Positions 9,655 to 18,145 of a DNA stretch of 64,000 nucleotides are shown here, in pieces; position 1 is the stretch's first letter; every line of letters starts with the position of its first letter. The position numbers and the translations under genes were made by a program. The stretch spans positions 496,001 to 560,000 of the forward strand of contig JARVLF010000020.1 in assembly GCA_030849465.1 (NCBI GenBank), written 5' to 3'. Under the pieces are notes generated by a model, which was given only the letters and a program-made list of their open reading frames with translations, ran no database searches and was not told the origin of the DNA. Source of the stretch: Moesziomyces globuligerus (taxonomy: Eukaryota; Basidiomycota; Ustilaginomycetes; Ustilaginales; Ustilaginaceae).

Positions 9655-12201
9655 ATGTCTCGTCGATATGCTGCGCACGATCTGTCGGACGCAGCGCTAG
9701 GTGGCTCCGGTCTGCGCATTCGCAACGGCCACTTTGTCGACTCGAGCGGCCGTACCGTCAACCTGCACGGCGTCAATGTCGCTGGGTCCAGCAAGCTTCC
9801 TACCACGCCCAACGGCCTCTCGCATCTGCACGAGGGCTTCTACGAGTCCCATCGCACCGTCTCGTTCGTAGGCAGGCCTTTCCCGCTCTCCGAGGCGCCA
9901 CTCCATTTTGCCCGTCTGCGCGCATGGGGGCTGCCGCTCATCCGGCTCCTCGTCACCTGGGAGTCGATCTCGCATGCTGGTCCGCGCACTCAGGATGTCG
10001 ACCTTGACTATATCCACTACCTCGAACAGCTCGTCAAGCTCATGGCCGACTACGGCCTCAAATGCTTCATCTGCGCGCATCAGGACGTCTGGTCCAGATT
10101 CAGCGGCGGCTCCGGCGCGCCCGCTTGGACCTTCCAGGCCGCAGGTCTGGACATCGAGACCTTCTCCTCCACAGGCGCAGCATACATCCACTGCCAAGAC
10201 GAGAAGCAAAAGCAGCAAGCAAGCACACCAAAGAAGGAGGAGACCGGCGCCTTCCTCTGGCCATCCGGATACCAGAAGCTCGCTGCGAGCACCATGGCCA
10301 CCTTGTTCTGGGCCGGCGATGCGCTCGCACCCAAGTTGACGCTCGATAGCCTCGATCCCGAGAGAGGCGCTCGCAAGGTCGGAGTGCAGAGCTTCCTACA
10401 GTCGTCCTACATCGAGGCCTTTGGCATGCTGGCGGATAGGCTCTTGCCGCTCGAGGCATGCATCGGCTTCGAGCCCATGAATGAGCCGCACCGGGGTCTC
10501 ATCAATCTGCACGACTTCCACGCGTGGAACTACGACACGGATCTGCACATCGGTCCCTACCCTTCGCTCATCCAGGCTCTCGCGCTCGGCAGCGGCTACA
10601 AGCAGCAGGTCAAGTTCTACGTCAAGTCCTGGCCTTTCCCCACGCGCGTCTCGCACACCACCACCATCGACCCCGACGGCCGCTCGTGCTGGCTCACGCA
10701 GAAGCACGACTCTGCCGACGCATCCGACGTTCTGGGCCACGGGCTTGGCTCGTGCCTCTGGCGAGAACACGGCGTTTGGGAGTGGGACGAGTCGAAGCAG
10801 GTGCCTGTGGTGCTTCAGTACGACTACTTTGAAAAGGACCATCGCCAGGGACGTCAGGGGCAGCGCATCGAGTGGTATCGCGATTGCTTTGGACCGTTCC
10901 TCCGGCGCTTCAGCGAGCGTGTCAACCGCGCGCGCCCCACCGCTTTCACGTTTGTCGAGCCGATCCCGAACGAGTTCATCCCGCCCTGGATCCCTGCACG
11001 CGTCATAGAGGACGCCGTCACCGCAGCCGAGTACAAGCAGGCTGCGTATGCGCAGAAGTACGCCACGCGCACGCTCATCGATACGCCGCGTCCCGGTGGC
11101 CAGGCAGGCTTCGTGTACGCGCCGCACTTCTACGACCTCAACGTGCTGTTTGGCAAGGTGCACTCGTGGATGAGCGTCAACGTGCAAGGGCTGAGCCGCG
11201 GGATGTTCATCACCAAGGCGCTCTACTTTGGCGCACAGGGGCTCAAGAACAACTACACGGTGCAGATCGGCCGGATCGCACAGCTGGCGCGCGCCTCGTT
11301 GGGCCGCGTACCCATCATCGTCGGCGAGGTGGGGATCCCGTTTGACATCAATGCCAAGCACGCGTACTCCACGGGCGACTACAGCAAGCAGCACGGGCTC
11401 ATGGATGCCCTCATCGCCGCCATGGAGACGCACGCGCTCGGCTTTACGCTCTGGAACTACAACCCGGACAACCGCGTCGAGTACGGCGATGGCTGGAACT
11501 TCGAAGACTTCAGCATCACCAACGGCGACCATGAGCATGTCGATGCCAGTGCTGGAGCGACGCCCGGCCTGAAGCCTGATTTCCGCAATGCGGCGCACGA
11601 GGACGATCCGCTCTACCGCGGCGGCCGGACGCTCGAGGTCGTCATCCGCCCATACGCTGTCAAGGTCGCGGGCATCCTCGTCGCCACCCGCTTCGACGCC
11701 GACACGCTCTTCTTCGAAGTGCACTGGAAGAATCCCGCCAAGCAGTCGGAAGAGCACTCGTCCGATGCCAGGGACGAGGAGAAGAGGAGGACGACCGAGA
11801 TCTTCGTCCCCGCCTACCACTATCGCCACAAGCGCTTCAGCATCACCACCACCGATGCCGAGACCACGTTCGACGCCGAGCTCCAGACGCTCTTCGTCAC
11901 GCATATCGACACCCGGCCCAACGTGCTGCACAAGCTCAAGATCGAGCTCGAGGATCCGCACGCGCATCGCCTGCACCGGCTGCGCGAGCGACGTCGACTC
12001 ATTCAGCCGCACGGCGTCGTCGAAAGACTGGGTAGACTGTGCCCGGAAAGTGTCGTTCTCGGCTGGAATGCGATGAGCGCAGCGCAGGTGCGCAGCATCG
12101 TCCTCGTGCTCCTCGTCATAGCGCTCGCCGTCTGGACGGTCGACCATCACATGTCGCGTCTCATGACGAGCCGAGCCTCAGCACTCGAGGACGAGCTCTG
12201 A
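9655..12201 (+). CDS. GH5 glucosylceramidase / sterylglucosidase-type enzyme (EGCrP-like)
   Basis: A single-exon ORF of 848 residues. The start of the fold is LRIRNGHFVDSSGRTVNLHG, typical of the fungal endoglycoceramidase-related GH5 group. The acid/base glutamate is E277 in GFEPMNEPHRG, and the nucleophile is E558 in IIVGEVGIPFDIN. The motif FTLWNYNPDNRVEYGDGWN follows, as in the family. A C-terminal beta domain is followed by a hydrophobic segment (AQVRSIVLVLLVIALAVWTV, about residues 810-830) that could anchor the protein in a membrane. Characterised fungal relatives hydrolyse glucosylceramide (EGCrP1) or steryl glucoside and other beta-glucosides (EGCrP2/Sgl1). The sequence alone does not tell me which substrate applies. 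Confidence 0.85.
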   Translation: MSRRYAAHDLSDAALGGSGLRIRNGHFVDSSGRTVNLHGVNVAGSSKLPTTPNGLSHLHEGFYESHRTVSFVGRPFPLSEAPLHFARLRAWGLPLIRLLVTWESISHAGPRTQDVDLDYIHYLEQLVKLMADYGLKCFICAHQDVWSRFSGGSGAPAWTFQAAGLDIETFSSTGAAYIHCQDEKQKQQASTPKKEETGAFLWPSGYQKLAASTMATLFWAGDALAPKLTLDSLDPERGARKVGVQSFLQSSYIEAFGMLADRLLPLEACIGFEPMNEPHRGLINLHDFHAWNYDTDLHIGPYPSLIQALALGSGYKQQVKFYVKSWPFPTRVSHTTTIDPDGRSCWLTQKHDSADASDVLGHGLGSCLWREHGVWEWDESKQVPVVLQYDYFEKDHRQGRQGQRIEWYRDCFGPFLRRFSERVNRARPTAFTFVEPIPNEFIPPWIPARVIEDAVTAAEYKQAAYAQKYATRTLIDTPRPGGQAGFVYAPHFYDLNVLFGKVHSWMSVNVQGLSRGMFITKALYFGAQGLKNNYTVQIGRIAQLARASLGRVPIIVGEVGIPFDINAKHAYSTGDYSKQHGLMDALIAAMETHALGFTLWNYNPDNRVEYGDGWNFEDFSITNGDHEHVDASAGATPGLKPDFRNAAHEDDPLYRGGRTLEVVIRPYAVKVAGILVATRFDADTLFFEVHWKNPAKQSEEHSSDARDEEKRRTTEIFVPAYHYRHKRFSITTTDAETTFDAELQTLFVTHIDTRPNVLHKLKIELEDPHAHRLHRLRERRRLIQPHGVVERLGRLCPESVVLGWNAMSAAQVRSIVLVLLVIALAVWTVDHHMSRLMTSRASALEDEL

Positions 12202-12543: not shown

Positions 12544-14934
12544 ATGGCGTCGCAAGCGCCGAGTGTGGCTGGGCCACCCGTGGCGGCCTCGCAACCCTCG
12601 CCGGGCTCGAATGCGAATGGCGCGCAGCAGGCGGGGCCGCATCTGCTCTCGCTCAAGGTGATGCGCGCTTCGGCGCCGGCGCTTGCGGTGAGCGAGAAGC
12701 CGTACTACGACGACGCGGATCTTCCACCTGGCGACGGCCTGCTTGCGGCCGTAGGCCGGGGCATCGATGCCGGGCTGAGCCAAGACCTGCTGGCGAACGC
12801 ATGGGACCGCGGAGCCTCGAGCAGCTCGGCAGGCGGCGCGGCGTACCGCGCAGCATCCGAGTCGTTTGCGATCAGCGGCCTGCTGGTGCTGCCGAACTCG
12901 TTTGGGACGCTGTTTCTCGGCGAGACGTTCCGGTCGTACCTGTGCGTGCGCAACGAGAGCGGCGCGGCGGTGCGCGAGCCGAGCCTCCGCGTCGAGATGC
13001 AGGTCGGCGCCTCGGACGCGCAGCAACCGTCGGACAGCGGACGCTGGCATCAGCTCGCGCACATCATCCTGCCCTCGCCCTCGCGCTACTCGCCCGAGCC
13101 CTCCTCCCGCCCCGCCCCCGGCCCAGACGGCGACGACGACGACGACGACGACGGCAGCGGTGGTGGCGACGGGCATCCGGTTTGGGAACTCGCTCCGGCT
13201 CAGGCGCTCGAAACGAGCCTGGGCTACGACATCAAAGACCTCGGCCCGCACGTGCTCGTCTGCACCGTCGGCTACAAGGCGCCGCTCACGCTGCCGGACG
13301 GGACGGTGTCGTGGGTCGAACGCTCGTTTCGCAAGTTCTTCAAGTTCGCCGTCGAGCGCTCGCCGATCTCGGTGCGGACCAAGGTGCATCAGCCGCGCGC
13401 GGCGTGTGCGCAGCTGCATCCGGACGCGGGCGTGCGCGAGCGCGTCGAGCTCGAGGTGCAGCTGCAAAACGTCGCGGCCAACGGCGCCTCGCTCGTGCTC
13501 GAGCGTCTCGACCTCAAGCCCGCGCCCGGTTGGAGGTGGCAGAGCATCGACCGGCCGTGGCTGACCTCGGAGGCGGTGGGTGCGGAAAAGGAGGCGGATG
13601 CGGATATGTGGACGGCGGGTGCGGCGCGGAGCAACCTGCTTTTGGCTGACGGCGATGTGCGGCAGTACCTCTTTGTGCTGCAGCGCGCCGACGAGGTGGC
13701 GTGGTACGAGGCGCGGCAGCAGGGTGCCGAGATGGGCGTGACGCCCGAAGGGTGGATGGTGCGCGGCGATGCGTTGGGCCATCTGGACATCGGTTGGCGC
13801 ATGAGCTTGGGCGAGCCGGGAAGGCTGCAGACGTCGCAGCTCGTGCGTCGGCGAGTCGTCGCGCCGGCGGTCTCGCCTGCTACTGCGCCCGGAGAAGGGC
13901 TGCCGGGTCCGCAGCTCGTTACGCAGCTGCAGCTGCGTCCGAGCGCGATCGACGCACTCGCGCACGTCGCGGCCGACACCGCAACGCTTTCGCTCGACGT
14001 TGCCGTCAGCATCGCCGACCTCTCTAGCCTCTCGCCAGGCGAGCCTAGCCGAGGCGGAGAGCGAGAGGATCAAGTGCGGGAGGATGAGGATGACGATACG
14101 CCGTTGTCCGAGATCGCCTCGCCGCAGCGCGGGCGTGTTCGGCCGGGCGCGCGCGCAGGCGAGGGTGGCGACGAGGTGCGCTCGGTGGTACGCACGTTTG
14201 AGCTCGCACTGCAGCACTGTAGCGTCGAGGCGAGCGAAGCGCGCGGGCCCGAAGAGGCTACGTTGGACAGTGGGGTTGTGACGCCACGTCGGGGTGGGAG
14301 GTCGAGTCGGACGTCGACGCCCGTGGCCGGGGCTGCGCAGTTGATGCAGAGGACGAGGCTTCAGACGAATCTCTCGAACCTCGTGCGTGCTGGTTCGCTC
14401 TCCCTTCGACCGGGACGGTCGTCGTTGGACGCAGAGACGTCGAGTGGTACATCGGGACCGACTCGACAATCCACTCCTGCGCCACCCATGCAAGAAGAGG
14501 CGCCGGTGGTACCGCCCAAAGCCTCTGCGGGTGCGGGGATGCCGGTGCCCGTCTTGTCGAGTGCGCGCATGGACAAGATCCACGCGGCGTGGATGCAGAA
14601 CCACGCCCAGGCCGTATCTCGAAGTCTGCAGCCAGACCATCTCGATCCTTCGCACTGCGCCCGATTCCTAGGCACCTCGATCGTAGCCTTGCCGCCCGTG
14701 ACACTCCGACTCGAGGCTCGTCGACACGCGGGACGGTGGCAAACCATGTCGCCGAGCGCACAGACCGTCGAGACCTCACTCACCTACGCGCTCGATGCGC
14801 CTCCTGGCTCGCATCTCCGCTTGGGCGCAGTCCGCATCCTACTCCTCAGCTACCGCGACGATGATGTCCAACGCTCCATCAGTCCGACGGTCCTAGACGA
14901 AATCCCCGTCATCGCAGAATGCCTCATACCGTAG
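12544..14934 (+). CDS. TRAPPC13-like TRAPP complex subunit (DUF974 family)
   Basis: A single-exon ORF of 796 residues. The family hallmarks are HLLSLKVMRASAPAL at about residues 35-50, then FAISGLLVLPNSFGTLFLGE followed by TFRSYLCVRNES at about residues 108-140. These match the N-terminal domain of TRAPPC13. An Asp run (about residues 197-205) and Ser/Arg/Glu-rich inserts (about residues 495-680) make it longer than animal TRAPPC13 (about 420 residues). The C terminus returns to beta-rich sequence, with SPTVLDEIPVIAECLIP at the end. TRAPPC13 belongs to TRAPP complexes acting on Rab GTPases at the Golgi. The gene lies about 4.5 kb from YPT1, the yeast TRAPP substrate; that proximity may be chance. 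Confidence 0.8.
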   Translation: MASQAPSVAGPPVAASQPSPGSNANGAQQAGPHLLSLKVMRASAPALAVSEKPYYDDADLPPGDGLLAAVGRGIDAGLSQDLLANAWDRGASSSSAGGAAYRAASESFAISGLLVLPNSFGTLFLGETFRSYLCVRNESGAAVREPSLRVEMQVGASDAQQPSDSGRWHQLAHIILPSPSRYSPEPSSRPAPGPDGDDDDDDDGSGGGDGHPVWELAPAQALETSLGYDIKDLGPHVLVCTVGYKAPLTLPDGTVSWVERSFRKFFKFAVERSPISVRTKVHQPRAACAQLHPDAGVRERVELEVQLQNVAANGASLVLERLDLKPAPGWRWQSIDRPWLTSEAVGAEKEADADMWTAGAARSNLLLADGDVRQYLFVLQRADEVAWYEARQQGAEMGVTPEGWMVRGDALGHLDIGWRMSLGEPGRLQTSQLVRRRVVAPAVSPATAPGEGLPGPQLVTQLQLRPSAIDALAHVAADTATLSLDVAVSIADLSSLSPGEPSRGGEREDQVREDEDDDTPLSEIASPQRGRVRPGARAGEGGDEVRSVVRTFELALQHCSVEASEARGPEEATLDSGVVTPRRGGRSSRTSTPVAGAAQLMQRTRLQTNLSNLVRAGSLSLRPGRSSLDAETSSGTSGPTRQSTPAPPMQEEAPVVPPKASAGAGMPVPVLSSARMDKIHAAWMQNHAQAVSRSLQPDHLDPSHCARFLGTSIVALPPVTLRLEARRHAGRWQTMSPSAQTVETSLTYALDAPPGSHLRLGAVRILLLSYRDDDVQRSISPTVLDEIPVIAECLIP

Positions 14935-15013: not shown

Positions 15014-18000
15014 CTACAATGTGAATGTGCGAGCTAGGGCGATGAGATGGTGAAGCGGGGTGATGTGGAGCCAACCTGCATCGACGGCGACTTGGGCTTC
15101 GACTTGAGGTCGAAAGCGCCTCTCTTGCAACCCGTCGTGAGGACCCGTGCAGACTACGAGCTGGGAAGGCTCGCCACCGCTGCGCGGGGTAAGTCGGACA
15201 TCGACAAACGCACACGTCTGCACGTCTTTGCCGTCTACGCTGAGGCTAGGCGTGTGCGGGGTGGAAAAGTCGATGTGGATGCGGTCAAAGTCGAAGCCGA
15301 GCCCTACACCCAGATGCTTGGTATACGCCTCCTTGTAGGTCCAGAGCGTATAAAGCCGTTCTAGTGCCTTGCGTTCATCCTGTTCCACATCGAGGGGATG
15401 TAGTACCCAGTTGGTCTCGGCGCGGGTGAGTGCCATATCCATCGTCTCTACAAATGCCCGCACGCTGTTCTCGTAGCGCGGCAAGGCGATCTGCATCACA
15501 TCCACGCCTACCATGCTGTTCTCCAGCGGCGCGAGGCAGAACGCCATCACCACCCAGTCGCCATCGTGCGAGAGGTTATAGACGACACGCAGCGCCAGTT
15601 CGGGCGCGACGAGGTACGGTCGTCCCTGCGCGGTAGCACCGAAGCGAACGCTCGTCCAACTGACGCCGAATCGCTGCGCCACAAGCACGCGTGGCAGCAA
15701 CCGCGCTACGAGCGAACGCACGCGGTCCACATGCCGATGATACCGCATCACCTTTTCGCGATCCCCCGCATTCGCCCTCCCCGGCAACAACGCCTCGACC
15801 ACCGCACCCAACTCCGCCTCGTCGAGAGCAGCGCAGTCCGAGATATCAACCGCCCACACCTGTAGATCCGAATCCGCACCGATCGCAAAGAGACCATCAA
15901 CCGCCGCGTCAGCAACTCTGCTCTCGAAAGCCTCGTCGGTCGTACCACTCGCCACTCCCTTGTCCGCAGAAGATGCGGGTATGGAAGCGGGTATGGAAGA
16001 AGGGGACTGACCTGAGCTAGACGCGACACCGGCGCGCGTGGAGACGGCCTCCTTGGCCACGATGAGCGCGTCGATGGTGTTGACGCGGCAGTCACGGAGG
16101 AACGAGACGAGGTCGGTGCCACCTGTACCCTTTGCGCCGCCGCCGTCGTCGTTGGAGCTGGTGTCGAGCGCTGCATTCGCCTCGGCCTCCTGCGCGAGCC
16201 TGGAGGTGGCAGCGAGCCTCCGGTCGACGGCCGGCTCGCCCGTGAAGCCCTTGGGCAGCGGTGCATAGGCATCCGGCGCCGAGCCGCGCGCCTGGGCGAC
16301 AATGTAGAGGTAGGCGATCTTCATGTGCTCGTCGCGCAGCGCCTTGAGCTGGGTGAGCGCATTATCGTACGCGGCAGGCAGACCCTCGTCGTGCTCCTCG
16401 CCCTTGGCCTTGAGCGCGAGACTGCGGATCGGATGCGGCCTCTCGCTCACCTCGCTCTCTGCCTCCGCCTCGTTCCCTGCAGCACTGGCGCCATGCGAAC
16501 CCAGGCTCGCATCATCGTCGTCGACATCGTCATCGTCGGCATCGTCGAACGAGATGGCGCGCAGATGCGAGAGGAAGGCGCGGTGGTGGCCAGGCATGTA
16601 CAACGACATCCTCTCCATGAAGGTCGCATCAGCGCCGCGCGCATCGCCGTTGACCGTGGCGGCGGGACGGTGGAGGCGCTCCTTGCGGCGTGTGTGGTCG
16701 ACGTCGAGGAAGACGTCGATGGCGTGGATCATGGAGCTCTGGCCGGCCGAGGGACCGGAAAAGACGCGCTTGACGCCTTCTGGGTCGACGCCCTCAAAGT
16801 GCCAGCCGAGCTCGTCACCCTTGTCGACGGTGTCGCTGCCGACGAACCAGGGTCGGATGCCCCAGTAGAAGATCTTGGGGTCGCAGGCGCTGCGTACGTC
16901 GTGGAGGAGACGCGTGAGGTCCTTGATGACGAGGGCGAGCCTGTTGAGATAGCCGGTGATGCGGCGACGAGCGACGCGGTCTGCGACAAAAGCCTCGTCG
17001 AGACTGACGCGCATGAGCTCGAGCGCCTCGACGCCTCTGGCCTCGATGAGGAGCGAGGTGAAGAAGAAGTGATGCTCTGAGGGGGTGGCGGTGAAGGTCT
17101 CGACGATGCGCAGGTTGTCTGGCTCGAGGCCGCGCGCAGGGTCGATGTAGTCCCAGTTCCAGAGGACGGTGGTGGCGTAGGTGAGCACAGGGGGCAGGTC
17201 GAGCTTCTGCGAGAGCTGAACCCAGGGCACGGCGATGGCGGCGGGAAGGCGGCGGGTGAATTTGCCGGCGAGCTCGTCCGCCAGATCCTGGTCGTCCTGG
17301 ACCTCTTCGGAGGACTTGCGGGAGAAGACGCCGAGCCAGCTGCGAGGAGTGAGGGTGGTGGGGGCGTGGTTGAGCTTGTGGGGCTGGCTGTGGATGTAGA
17401 AGTGGGCGAGGAAGGCGAGGACGAGGTGTCCGCGTCGGGCGAAGCGGATGTCGTTGGCGAGTTGGTCGGAGAGAGGCAGGACGGGCATTTGACGGAGGGA
17501 GCGACGCCATCTGCGCGCGAGGAGGCGCTGGTGTGGCGTGATGGTGGCGCCGCCGCCGCCGTGCATGAGTGGGATACGCTTTGCCTCGTCGAGCGCGTTC
17601 TCCCAGTGATCGGCGTGTGCACCGGTCAGGCGGCGTACGGGCGCCTCTGGGGGGAGGAAGCCGGAGCGGACGTCGATGTCAAAGTCGGCGGCAGCTAGGG
17701 TGGAGGTGTCTGGGATGTGGTCGTCGACGGTGGAGAAGCCGGCGGGACGGGGTACGGCGTCTGCGAGGCGATCCGAGGGGAGGTTGATGCGCGCGAGCGA
17801 AGAAGGTGCGGCGGGGATGCCTGCCTGCACGGCGATGGCTAGCTCGGAGAGCGGCTGAGAGGCGGCATGGGGGAAGGCGGCGGCAGCAGCTTGGGATGGT
17901 GATGAGGAAGCTTGGTCGAGGGTGGATGCGGAGGAGGTGGAAGAGCGACGAGCGGCGGGGGTGGATTGTGAGGCGTCGGTGTGGTGCGACTTGTGGGGAC

Positions 18001-18145
18001 CTCGCTGCTGGGCGAGGAAGTGGTCTGGGGGCACTTCAAAGTACTCTGCCTCGTCGTGCGAGTCGGGCCAGGAGGGGTAGAATGTGGCTTTTGGTGACGA
18101 GGAGAGGCGGCTGGGCCCTGCGGCGGCGTTGTTGTTGGAGTGCAT
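15014..18145 (-). CDS. Indoleamine 2,3-dioxygenase fused to Lys5/AASDHPPT-type phosphopantetheinyl transferase
   Basis: One uninterrupted ORF of 1043 residues. After a Ser/Pro-rich N terminus (about 1-130), residues about 140-700 are an indoleamine 2,3-dioxygenase. Motifs include DFDIDVRSGFLPPEAPV, PPVLTYATTVLWNWDYIDP, FYWGIRPWFVG, AGQSSMIHAIDVFLDVDH and MPGHHRAFLSHLRAI. H521 corresponds to the proximal haem ligand. An acidic insert follows the histidine, and the domain closes with GTGGTDLVSFLRDCRV. After a Ser/Pro linker, residues about 760-1043 form a 4'-phosphopantetheinyl transferase: YNLSHDGDWVVMAF, GVDVM with metal ligand D882, and LWTYKEAYTKHLGVGLGFDF with K938/E939. GVDVM rather than GIDIE points to the Lys5/AASDHPPT class. 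IDO opens tryptophan to N-formylkynurenine; the PPTase activates carrier domains, including alpha-aminoadipate reductase in lysine synthesis. The linker has no in-frame ATG suitable for a separate PPTase. Convergent with TRAPPC13, 79 bp away. Confidence 0.88.
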   Translation of the reverse strand: MHSNNNAAAGPSRLSSSPKATFYPSWPDSHDEAEYFEVPPDHFLAQQRGPHKSHHTDASQSTPAARRSSTSSASTLDQASSSPSQAAAAAFPHAASQPLSELAIAVQAGIPAAPSSLARINLPSDRLADAVPRPAGFSTVDDHIPDTSTLAAADFDIDVRSGFLPPEAPVRRLTGAHADHWENALDEAKRIPLMHGGGGATITPHQRLLARRWRRSLRQMPVLPLSDQLANDIRFARRGHLVLAFLAHFYIHSQPHKLNHAPTTLTPRSWLGVFSRKSSEEVQDDQDLADELAGKFTRRLPAAIAVPWVQLSQKLDLPPVLTYATTVLWNWDYIDPARGLEPDNLRIVETFTATPSEHHFFFTSLLIEARGVEALELMRVSLDEAFVADRVARRRITGYLNRLALVIKDLTRLLHDVRSACDPKIFYWGIRPWFVGSDTVDKGDELGWHFEGVDPEGVKRVFSGPSAGQSSMIHAIDVFLDVDHTRRKERLHRPAATVNGDARGADATFMERMSLYMPGHHRAFLSHLRAISFDDADDDDVDDDDASLGSHGASAAGNEAEAESEVSERPHPIRSLALKAKGEEHDEGLPAAYDNALTQLKALRDEHMKIAYLYIVAQARGSAPDAYAPLPKGFTGEPAVDRRLAATSRLAQEAEANAALDTSSNDDGGGAKGTGGTDLVSFLRDCRVNTIDALIVAKEAVSTRAGVASSSGQSPSSIPASIPASSADKGVASGTTDEAFESRVADAAVDGLFAIGADSDLQVWAVDISDCAALDEAELGAVVEALLPGRANAGDREKVMRYHRHVDRVRSLVARLLPRVLVAQRFGVSWTSVRFGATAQGRPYLVAPELALRVVYNLSHDGDWVVMAFCLAPLENSMVGVDVMQIALPRYENSVRAFVETMDMALTRAETNWVLHPLDVEQDERKALERLYTLWTYKEAYTKHLGVGLGFDFDRIHIDFSTPHTPSLSVDGKDVQTCAFVDVRLTPRSGGEPSQLVVCTGPHDGLQERRFRPQVEAQVAVDAGWLHITPLHHLIALARTFTL

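What the first reader, a model, noticed from the sequence alone, without database searches (positions are those of the whole stretch)
15014..18145. Single ORF fuses indoleamine 2,3-dioxygenase to a Lys5-type phosphopantetheinyl transferase
Seen: an uninterrupted 1043-codon frame with a complete IDO (haem ligand H521, closing motif GTGGTDLVSFLRDC), a Ser/Pro linker, and a complete PPTase (D882, K938/E939). No in-frame ATG in the linker could start a full PPTase. Known: IDO opens tryptophan toward kynurenine/NAD+; Lys5/AASDHPPT enzymes activate carrier domains, such as alpha-aminoadipate reductase for lysine. I am not aware of a described IDO-PPTase fusion. Inference: either a true bifunctional enzyme coupling amino-acid catabolism to carrier-protein activation, or a fused precursor that is cleaved or alternatively expressed. 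If it is the only Lys5-type PPTase, the fusion would make IDO expression essential for lysine synthesis.
Basis: partly seen in the sequence, partly recalled or inferred. Interest (0 to 1): 0.8.

Follow-up and report, generated by a model that had tools for sequence, protein, structure and literature searches.

The report
Two-enzyme smut gene with switchable intron
A smut-fungus gene joins a tryptophan-degrading enzyme to the enzyme that switches on lysine and siderophore assembly lines, and the DNA of the joint looks like an optional intron that could decide whether the second enzyme is made at all.

Summary
The ORF is real: window 18145-15014, minus strand, 1043 codons, complete IDO (Pfam 388 bits) plus complete Lys5/AASDHPPT-type PPTase. 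The fusion is not peculiar to this genome: 18 of 48 database homologues carry the same three Pfam domains. Named Exobasidiomycetes and Malassezia have a free PPTase, and trees fit one fusion event. It is the only AASDHPPT_N match in the 18.5-Mb assembly, which also holds Lys2; a second, divergent IDO exists.

[SDN]GQ[SG] occurs in 19 of 19 linkers that are otherwise unalike; CAGGTNAGT occurs once in 64 kb. One GenBank model (U. loliicola, 785 aa) ends as this splice predicts. Best reading: one gene, two outputs. Intron kept = IDO-PPTase; intron removed = IDO alone, 715 aa. No transcript was seen and relatives' DNA was out of reach, so splicing is inferred. No title or abstract listed by my paper searches describes the fusion.

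The parts
15014..18145 (-). IDO-PPTase fusion ORF, 1043 aa plus stop
   Evidence: open frame of 1058 codons in the assembly
16070..17692 (-). IDO domain (residues 152-692)
   Evidence: Pfam PF01231, 388.4 bits, profile 2-411 of 412
16325..16327 (-). H607, predicted proximal haem ligand
   Evidence: aligned to IDO1 LRSYHLQI; invariant in 47 rows
15860..16060 (-). Ser-rich linker, residues 696-762
   Evidence: pLDDT under 50 up to residue 758
15860..16011 (-). predicted optional intron, 152 nt, phase 1 donor and phase 0 acceptor, frame-breaking
16004..16015 (-). S711-G712-Q713-S714, TCA GGT CAG TCC, donor CAG|GTCAGT
   Evidence: only CAGGTNAGT in the 64-kb window, both strands; [SDN]GQ[SG] in 19 of 19 linkers
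15908..15912 (-). CTGAC, predicted branch site (A745-D746), about 50 nt before the acceptor
15860..15865 (-). CTACAG, predicted acceptor (L761-Q762)
15017..15859 (-). predicted second exon: Lys5/AASDHPPT-type PPTase, residues 763-1043
15542..15766 (-). PPTase N-terminal half (AASDHPPT_N, 794-868)
   Evidence: sole match in the assembly
15206..15511 (-). PPTase C-terminal half (ACPS, 879-980) with D882, K938, E939, K943

Best explanation
A single Ustilaginomycete gene makes two proteins by optional splicing of an intron that doubles as the coding linker. If the 152-nt stretch is kept, the mRNA encodes a 1043-aa protein with IDO followed by a Lys5-type PPTase that charges the carrier domains of Lys2, NRPSs and PKSs. 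If it is removed, the frame shifts and a 715-aa IDO ending ...SSSGVGG is made, without PPTase. Splicing efficiency then sets the amount of PPTase relative to IDO. Shown: the ORF, both complete domains, conservation of the fusion, sole AASDHPPT_N match in this assembly, a splice-signal signature. Inferred: that splicing happens, that both products accumulate, and both enzyme activities.
For: Donor CAG|GTCAGT, branch CTGAC and acceptor CTACAG| sit in order in the linker; removal gives a 715-aa IDO that stops after GVGG. CAGGTNAGT occurs once in 64 kb on both strands, here (AGGTNAGT three times); the full AG|GTNAGT...CTRAC...YAG pattern occurs once, here. Codons that make the signals are rare: TCA 7/203, GGT 35/190, GCT 35/300, CTA 10/257, GTT 10/181; linker GC3 0.60 against 0.80. 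Synonymous redraws of the same protein stretch gave the donor in 77 of 20000 and the full pattern in 12 of 20000. [SDN]GQ[SG] is in 19 of 19 linkers, residue shuffles give 0.59 of 19 on average and 0 of 2000 reach 19; a residue pair able to spell CTRAC lies 38-72 nt before the acceptor in 19 of 19, shuffles 9.95 on average, 0 of 2000 reach 19. The U. loliicola model P0015 ends IPSSDLGR, which is what S-S-G|AT CTG GGC CGT TGA yields if its second exon starts IWAVD like its fused relatives P0012 and P0014. The predicted exon edge falls at the PPTase fold edge: strand from 761, pLDDT under 50 up to 758. Intron retention made up 59% of alternative splicing events in U. maydis ESTs (passages of PMC2219887).
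Against: No transcript of any species was seen. All signature tests were made after I had seen the signals, and the codon background is three ORFs. The donor has C at +3 and the stretch is not richer in pyrimidines than the ORF (0.52 against 0.55). A looser branch pattern, [STPA][DN] anywhere in the linker, is no commoner than in shuffles (19 against 18.8). Linkers of 2 of 19 rows do not end in Q: P0011 ends HVH, which offers no CAG there, and P0019 ends KLR. Q before [VI]WA also occurs in 3 of 11 named free PPTases and WAVD in 11 of 11, so acceptor and stop are weak evidence apart from their rare codons. SGQS might be a protein-level motif. P0015 is a gene model: passages of PMC9603552 give RNA-seq support for U. 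hordei, none for U. nuda and U. tritici, and do not state U. loliicola's method. Five named smut species seen (U. hordei, S. graminicola, S. scitamineum, P. hubeiensis, Testicularia cyperi) are not among the named hits.
Confidence: 0.6

Rival explanations
1. Obligate bifunctional fusion: one unspliced mRNA and one IDO-PPTase polypeptide; the SGQS motif is a protein motif or chance.
For: 18 of 48 hits are models of the whole fusion with an uninterrupted linker (being fused models they are open by selection). The PPTase has no Met start in the linker of the window.
Against: The donor motif is the one feature shared by linkers that are otherwise unalike; rare codons and synonymous redraws favour a splice signal; P0015 ends as the splice predicts.
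Confidence: 0.16
2. Unproductive splicing: the intron is removed in part of the mRNA, but the spliced form (stop followed by about 0.8 kb of former coding sequence) is destroyed by nonsense-mediated decay, so splicing only lowers the output of the fusion.
For: The spliced stop lies just after the junction, leaving a long 3' part. An in silico study of the NMD factor UPF1 in U. maydis exists (PMC4749658, title and start of abstract in the listing).
Against: The spliced frame ends just past a complete IDO domain, near where the free IDO of Acaromyces ends (P0024, NTIEALLGEQA), so the product should be a usable enzyme.
Confidence: 0.15
3. The two enzymes are separate products of overlapping transcripts: PPTase is translated from an internal ATG or an internal promoter, and the long ORF is incidental.
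For: P0049, a 273-aa protein on unnamed contigs (longest 3937 bases), starts at an internal Met of the PPTase and is sister to the fused S. reilianum protein; 11 of 18 homologues have a Met in the linker.
Against: In the window the first Met after 608 is M800, inside the PPTase, beyond the conserved WAVDIS strand; linker Mets are absent in 7 of 18 homologues and in the window. In-frame linkers of 66-121 residues in 18 relatives would be odd if incidental, though these rows were selected for being fused.
Confidence: 0.07

Closest known systems
Lys5/AASDHPPT (Sfp-type) PPTases, such as A. fumigatus PptA
   Same: AASDHPPT_N plus ACPS halves, GVD and WxxKExxxK motifs; fold matches human 2cg5. PptA serves lysine, siderophore and secondary metabolism (abstract of PMC5516258).
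   Different: Here it is the C-terminal part of an IDO protein and has no start codon of its own in the linker of the window.
Indoleamine 2,3-dioxygenase / BNA2-type tryptophan dioxygenase
   Same: Full Pfam IDO domain with conserved haem His and GTGGTDL motif.
   Different: Carries a disordered linker and a PPTase; the Exobasidiomycete hits have IDO alone.
Dual-output genes of fungi: glycolytic enzymes with peroxisomal isoforms made by alternative splicing or readthrough (Freitag 2012, not read; as cited in passages of PMC4207609) and SKI7/HBS1 (passages of PMC3597508)
   Same: One gene, two proteins, choice made by splicing; the SKI7/HBS1 paper reports U. maydis ESTs with exon 2 skipped.
   Different: Those add a targeting signal or make two related proteins. 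Here the choice would add or omit a whole unrelated enzyme, and the intron itself is the linker.
Free PPTases of Exobasidiomycetes and Malassezia (P0050, P0052, P0054-P0057, P0061, P0068, P0077, P0078, P0081)
   Same: Nearest named relatives of the fused PPTase domain (P0057 not put in the trees).
   Different: Models of stand-alone proteins whose N-termini lead into the WAVD strand.

Membership tests
Indoleamine 2,3-dioxygenase | Full-length PF01231 match over its cut-off | tested here: met
   388.4 bits, cut-off 26, 2-411 of 412
Indoleamine 2,3-dioxygenase | Proximal haem histidine | tested here: met
   H607 aligns with the IDO1 ligand position (ligand number recalled), invariant in 47 rows
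Indoleamine 2,3-dioxygenase | Tryptophan dioxygenase activity | not testable with these tools
   needs an enzyme assay
Lys5/AASDHPPT (Sfp-type) PPTase | Two-lobed architecture AASDHPPT_N + ACPS | tested here: met
   55.1 and 46.4 bits over cut-offs; Foldseek 2cg5 E 1.9e-12, TMt 0.78
Lys5/AASDHPPT (Sfp-type) PPTase | Motif residues GxD and WxxKExxxK | tested here: met
   D882, K938, E939, K943 invariant in 19 aligned rows
Lys5/AASDHPPT (Sfp-type) PPTase | Activates the aminoadipate reductase Lys2 | not testable with these tools
   Lys2 is present in the same assembly (TIGR03443, 1707.8 bits, cut-off 1030.1)
Retained-intron dual-product gene | Canonical donor, branch and acceptor in order | tested here: met
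Retained-intron dual-product gene | Both forms would encode complete enzymes | tested here: met
   1043-aa fusion and 715-aa protein that holds the whole IDO domain
Retained-intron dual-product gene | Both transcripts observed | not testable with these tools
   no RNA data in reach; P0015 is a gene model
Retained-intron dual-product gene | Splice signals conserved in relatives at DNA level | tested here: inconclusive

The most novel reading that the evidence does not exclude
Since the origin of the Ustilaginomycetes the only Lys5-type PPTase of these fungi has been expressed only when a coding intron escapes splicing: the same nucleotides serve as donor, branch site and acceptor and as the protein linker. 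Splicing efficiency would thus be a dial that links tryptophan catabolism to the capacity for lysine, siderophore and polyketide synthesis.
Probability: 0.4. Interest if true: 0.82.

Novelty: new variant of a known kind. Interest (0 to 1): 0.7.

Why it matters
Carrier-protein activation is a bottleneck for lysine, siderophores and secondary metabolites, and PptA has been proposed as an antifungal target (abstract of PMC5516258). If smuts make their sole Lys5-type PPTase only from intron-retaining mRNA, one RNA event would gate several pathways at once. It would also be a clear case of an intron that is simultaneously a conserved coding linker. The idea can be tested directly with existing RNA-seq of smut fungi.

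Tried and rejected
Rejected: H521 as haem ligand. 'Fusion is an assembly or frame accident': the same architecture is in 18 of 48 homologues. In-frame splicing from the same donor: of seven YAG acceptors 35-500 nt away, the only in-phase one removes 306 nt and cuts off the PPTase start. 'U. loliicola lost the PPTase': its IDO sits among the fused rows and its tail equals the predicted splice product, though its PPTase was not seen. A first PPTase tree of 43 rows with far outgroups split the fused set (3 changes, long branches warned). I rebuilt it with 32 Ustilaginomycotina rows, dropping 11: nine far outgroups, a fern-labelled row and P0049 (1 change, support 87/84, 88% of bootstraps). The trees used 13 of the 86 PPTase hits and 13 of the 29 free IDO hits; in the IDO tree P0015 was counted with the fused rows, and that tree carries long-branch warnings. 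G712 is listed as invariant, but for P0016 and P0018 the aligner put another Gly in that column, so I rely instead.

Led nowhere: literature searches for the fusion. The AlphaFold model of the IDO half was poor (19-row alignment, mean pLDDT 52.9); a second job with 47 rows was still unfinished when last asked.
Full report
OBSERVATION. The minus strand of the window holds an unbroken ORF at 15014-18145 with 1043 codons and an ATG start. It lies in the assembly G000 (18,538,747 bases in 24 contigs), where the frame is open without stops. Pfam finds a full IDO domain at 152-692 and a two-lobed PPTase at 794-980. PDB sequence matches are IDO1/IDO2 chains for the first part and AASDHPPT and Sfp for the second. 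Foldseek with the predicted model gives 2cg5, E 1.9e-12; its IDO matches are weak (best E 1.1e-3, TMt 0.21) because that half of the model is poor.

CONSERVATION. A search of about 5.8 billion proteins returned 48 homologues (7995 candidates scored). Of these, 18 have IDO, AASDHPPT_N and ACPS together; named ones are Moesziomyces aphidis, Ustilago trichophora (two), Sporisorium reilianum, Kalmanozyma brasiliensis, Melanopsichium pennsylvanicum, Pseudozyma flocculosa, Thecaphora frezii and Violaceomyces palustris. The other 30 have IDO alone: 28 at 38-52% identity, one Rhodotorula (P0048, 35%), and U. loliicola P0015 at 72%. A search with four PPTase domains returned 86 proteins. Named Ustilaginomycotina with a free PPTase are Parajaminaea, Sympodiomycopsis, Tilletia, Meira, Exobasidium and Malassezia; none of the named rows is a smut of the fused group (class placement recalled). 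Both domain trees place the fused rows on one side of a branch (PPTase 87/84; IDO 95 by SH-aLRT, quick method, P0015 counted as fused, long branches warned), which fits one fusion event at or near the base of Ustilaginomycetes. An earlier tree with far outgroups did not. Against universality: U. hordei, S. graminicola, S. scitamineum, P. hubeiensis and Testicularia cyperi, all present in the same database, are not among the named hits; they may be among its unnamed rows, or absent.

GENOME CONTEXT. In the own assembly PF01648 matches at three places: a FAS-like frame of 3703 codons, the fusion, and a frame of 1035 codons on contig 13 (FAS part). AASDHPPT_N matches only at the fusion. The search is exon by exon in six frames, so a strongly split or diverged gene could be missed. 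IDO matches twice: the fusion, and C20:240318-241481 with 129.5 bits, a 681-aa ORF that is 24% identical over 245 columns. Clients are present: 24 PP-binding places, among them Lys2 on contig 6 (TIGR03443, 1707.8 bits). Kynureninase is over its cut-off; the 3-hydroxyanthranilate dioxygenase model matched below its cut-off in two pieces. By analogy with A. fumigatus PptA (abstract of PMC5516258) the PPTase half is predicted to be needed for lysine.

THE LINKER IS AN INTRON IN DISGUISE. The Ser-rich linker (residues 696-762) is hardly conserved, yet all 19 fused proteins examined, the window's included, contain [SDN]GQ[SG] in it; residue shuffles give 0.59 of 19 on average. In the window these codons read TCA GGT CAG TCC, which is CAG|GTCAGT, a near-consensus 5' splice site (consensus recalled). 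Downstream lie CTGAC and CTACAG|, 152 nt in all. CAGGTNAGT occurs once in 64 kb of both strands, AGGTNAGT three times, and the whole donor-branch-acceptor pattern once. The codons used are rare ones (TCA 3.4%, CTA 3.9%, GTT 5.5%) and GC3 falls from 0.80 to 0.60 in the linker; T rises from 0.18 to 0.24, but total pyrimidine does not (0.52 against 0.55). Redrawing the same residues from local codon usage gave the donor in 77 and the full pattern in 12 of 20000 draws. In the 18 relatives only proteins could be read: a residue pair able to encode CTRAC lies 38-72 nt before the acceptor in each of the 19 rows, shuffles 9.95 on average, none of 2000 reaching 19. The same pairs counted anywhere in the linker show no excess. 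Linkers end in Q in 17 of 19; P0011 (HVH) has no CAG there and P0019 (KLR) would need a shifted site. These patterns were chosen after I had seen the sequences, and the codon background is three ORFs.

WHAT SPLICING WOULD DO. Removal shifts the frame and stops after GGT GTG GGC GGT (TGA), giving a 715-aa IDO. The GenBank protein of U. loliicola (P0015, NDA16_000152) ends SSDLGR: G|AT CTG GGC CGT TGA, the same donor and acceptor applied to an exon that starts IWAVD, as in its fused relatives P0012 and P0014; its own DNA was not seen. This suggests that a gene finder chose this intron, not that the cell does: passages of PMC9603552 say BRAKER with RNA-seq for U. hordei and without RNA-seq for U. 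nuda and U. tritici, and do not name U. loliicola's method. P0049, a PPTase piece starting at an internal Met and sister to S. reilianum's fused protein, would fit a spliced transcript contig but also a truncated one. WAVD, which supplies the stop, occurs in 11 of 11 named free PPTases and the Q before [VI]WA in 3 of 11, so these carry little weight on their own.

MECHANISM. Most likely the gene yields IDO alone from spliced mRNA and IDO-PPTase from intron-retaining mRNA, so that splicing sets the PPTase dose. In U. maydis ESTs intron retention made up 59% of alternative splicing events (passages of PMC2219887), and splicing-made dual products are known in fungi (passages of PMC3597508 and PMC4207609). 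That the fusion is kept in 18 relatives, and that this is the only AASDHPPT_N match in the genome, argue that the retained form is used; the conserved donor argues that the spliced form is used too. Whether the spliced mRNA is translated or decayed is open.

NOVELTY. Seven of my ten paper searches bore on the fusion or its enzymes; the other three on splicing and U. loliicola. One search (indoleamine, PPTase, Ustilago together) found no paper; in the others I saw capped listings, and no title or abstract start describes an IDO-PPTase fusion. The library holds open-licence PMC papers only, and of six papers opened I read passages or an abstract. As a kind it is a new variant of known things (fusion enzyme; dual-output gene by intron retention), with the unusual point that the intron is the linker and gates an entire, probably essential enzyme.

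Noticed in passing
G000:C13:202131-202448 (+), locus L004:88-2823: An AcpS-type PPTase domain sits inside a cytosolic phospholipase A2-like ORF (PLA2_B 100-264, ACPS 472-576, a DAGMSNNLP stretch after it). Named smuts (U. hordei, U. trichophora, S. reilianum, S. graminicola, M. pennsylvanicum, S. scitamineum, P. hubeiensis, Testicularia, P. flocculosa) have both Pfam domains in one protein. Stachybotrys and several other ascomycete proteins of about 890-960 aa align over 100% of the searched part at 47-51% identity, but Pfam lists only PLA2_B for them and a scan of one (P0154) found no ACPS; many shorter ascomycete PLA2s align over only about 56%. All three ACPS domains found in this genome are thus parts of larger proteins.
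   Followed up: partly
G000:C20:240318-241481 (+), locus L006:982-3027: Second, divergent IDO (681-aa ORF, 128.6 bits) whose N-terminal region looks like a mitochondrial presequence (by eye); it has ATGGSPILQYLPN in place of GTGGTDL.
   Followed up: partly
window 12544-14934 (+) and 15014-18145 (-): The neighbouring TRAPPC13-like gene converges on the fusion gene with only 79 bases between the two ORF ends, so overlapping 3' ends and antisense RNA are likely.
   Followed up: no
P0049 (273 aa, unnamed contigs): PPTase piece beginning at an internal Met, sister to the S. reilianum fused protein; possible trace of a spliced transcript in an archive assembly, or a truncated contig.
   Followed up: partly
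window 9655-12201 (+): Glycoside hydrolase family 5 gene with the GH5 C-terminal domain.
   Followed up: no
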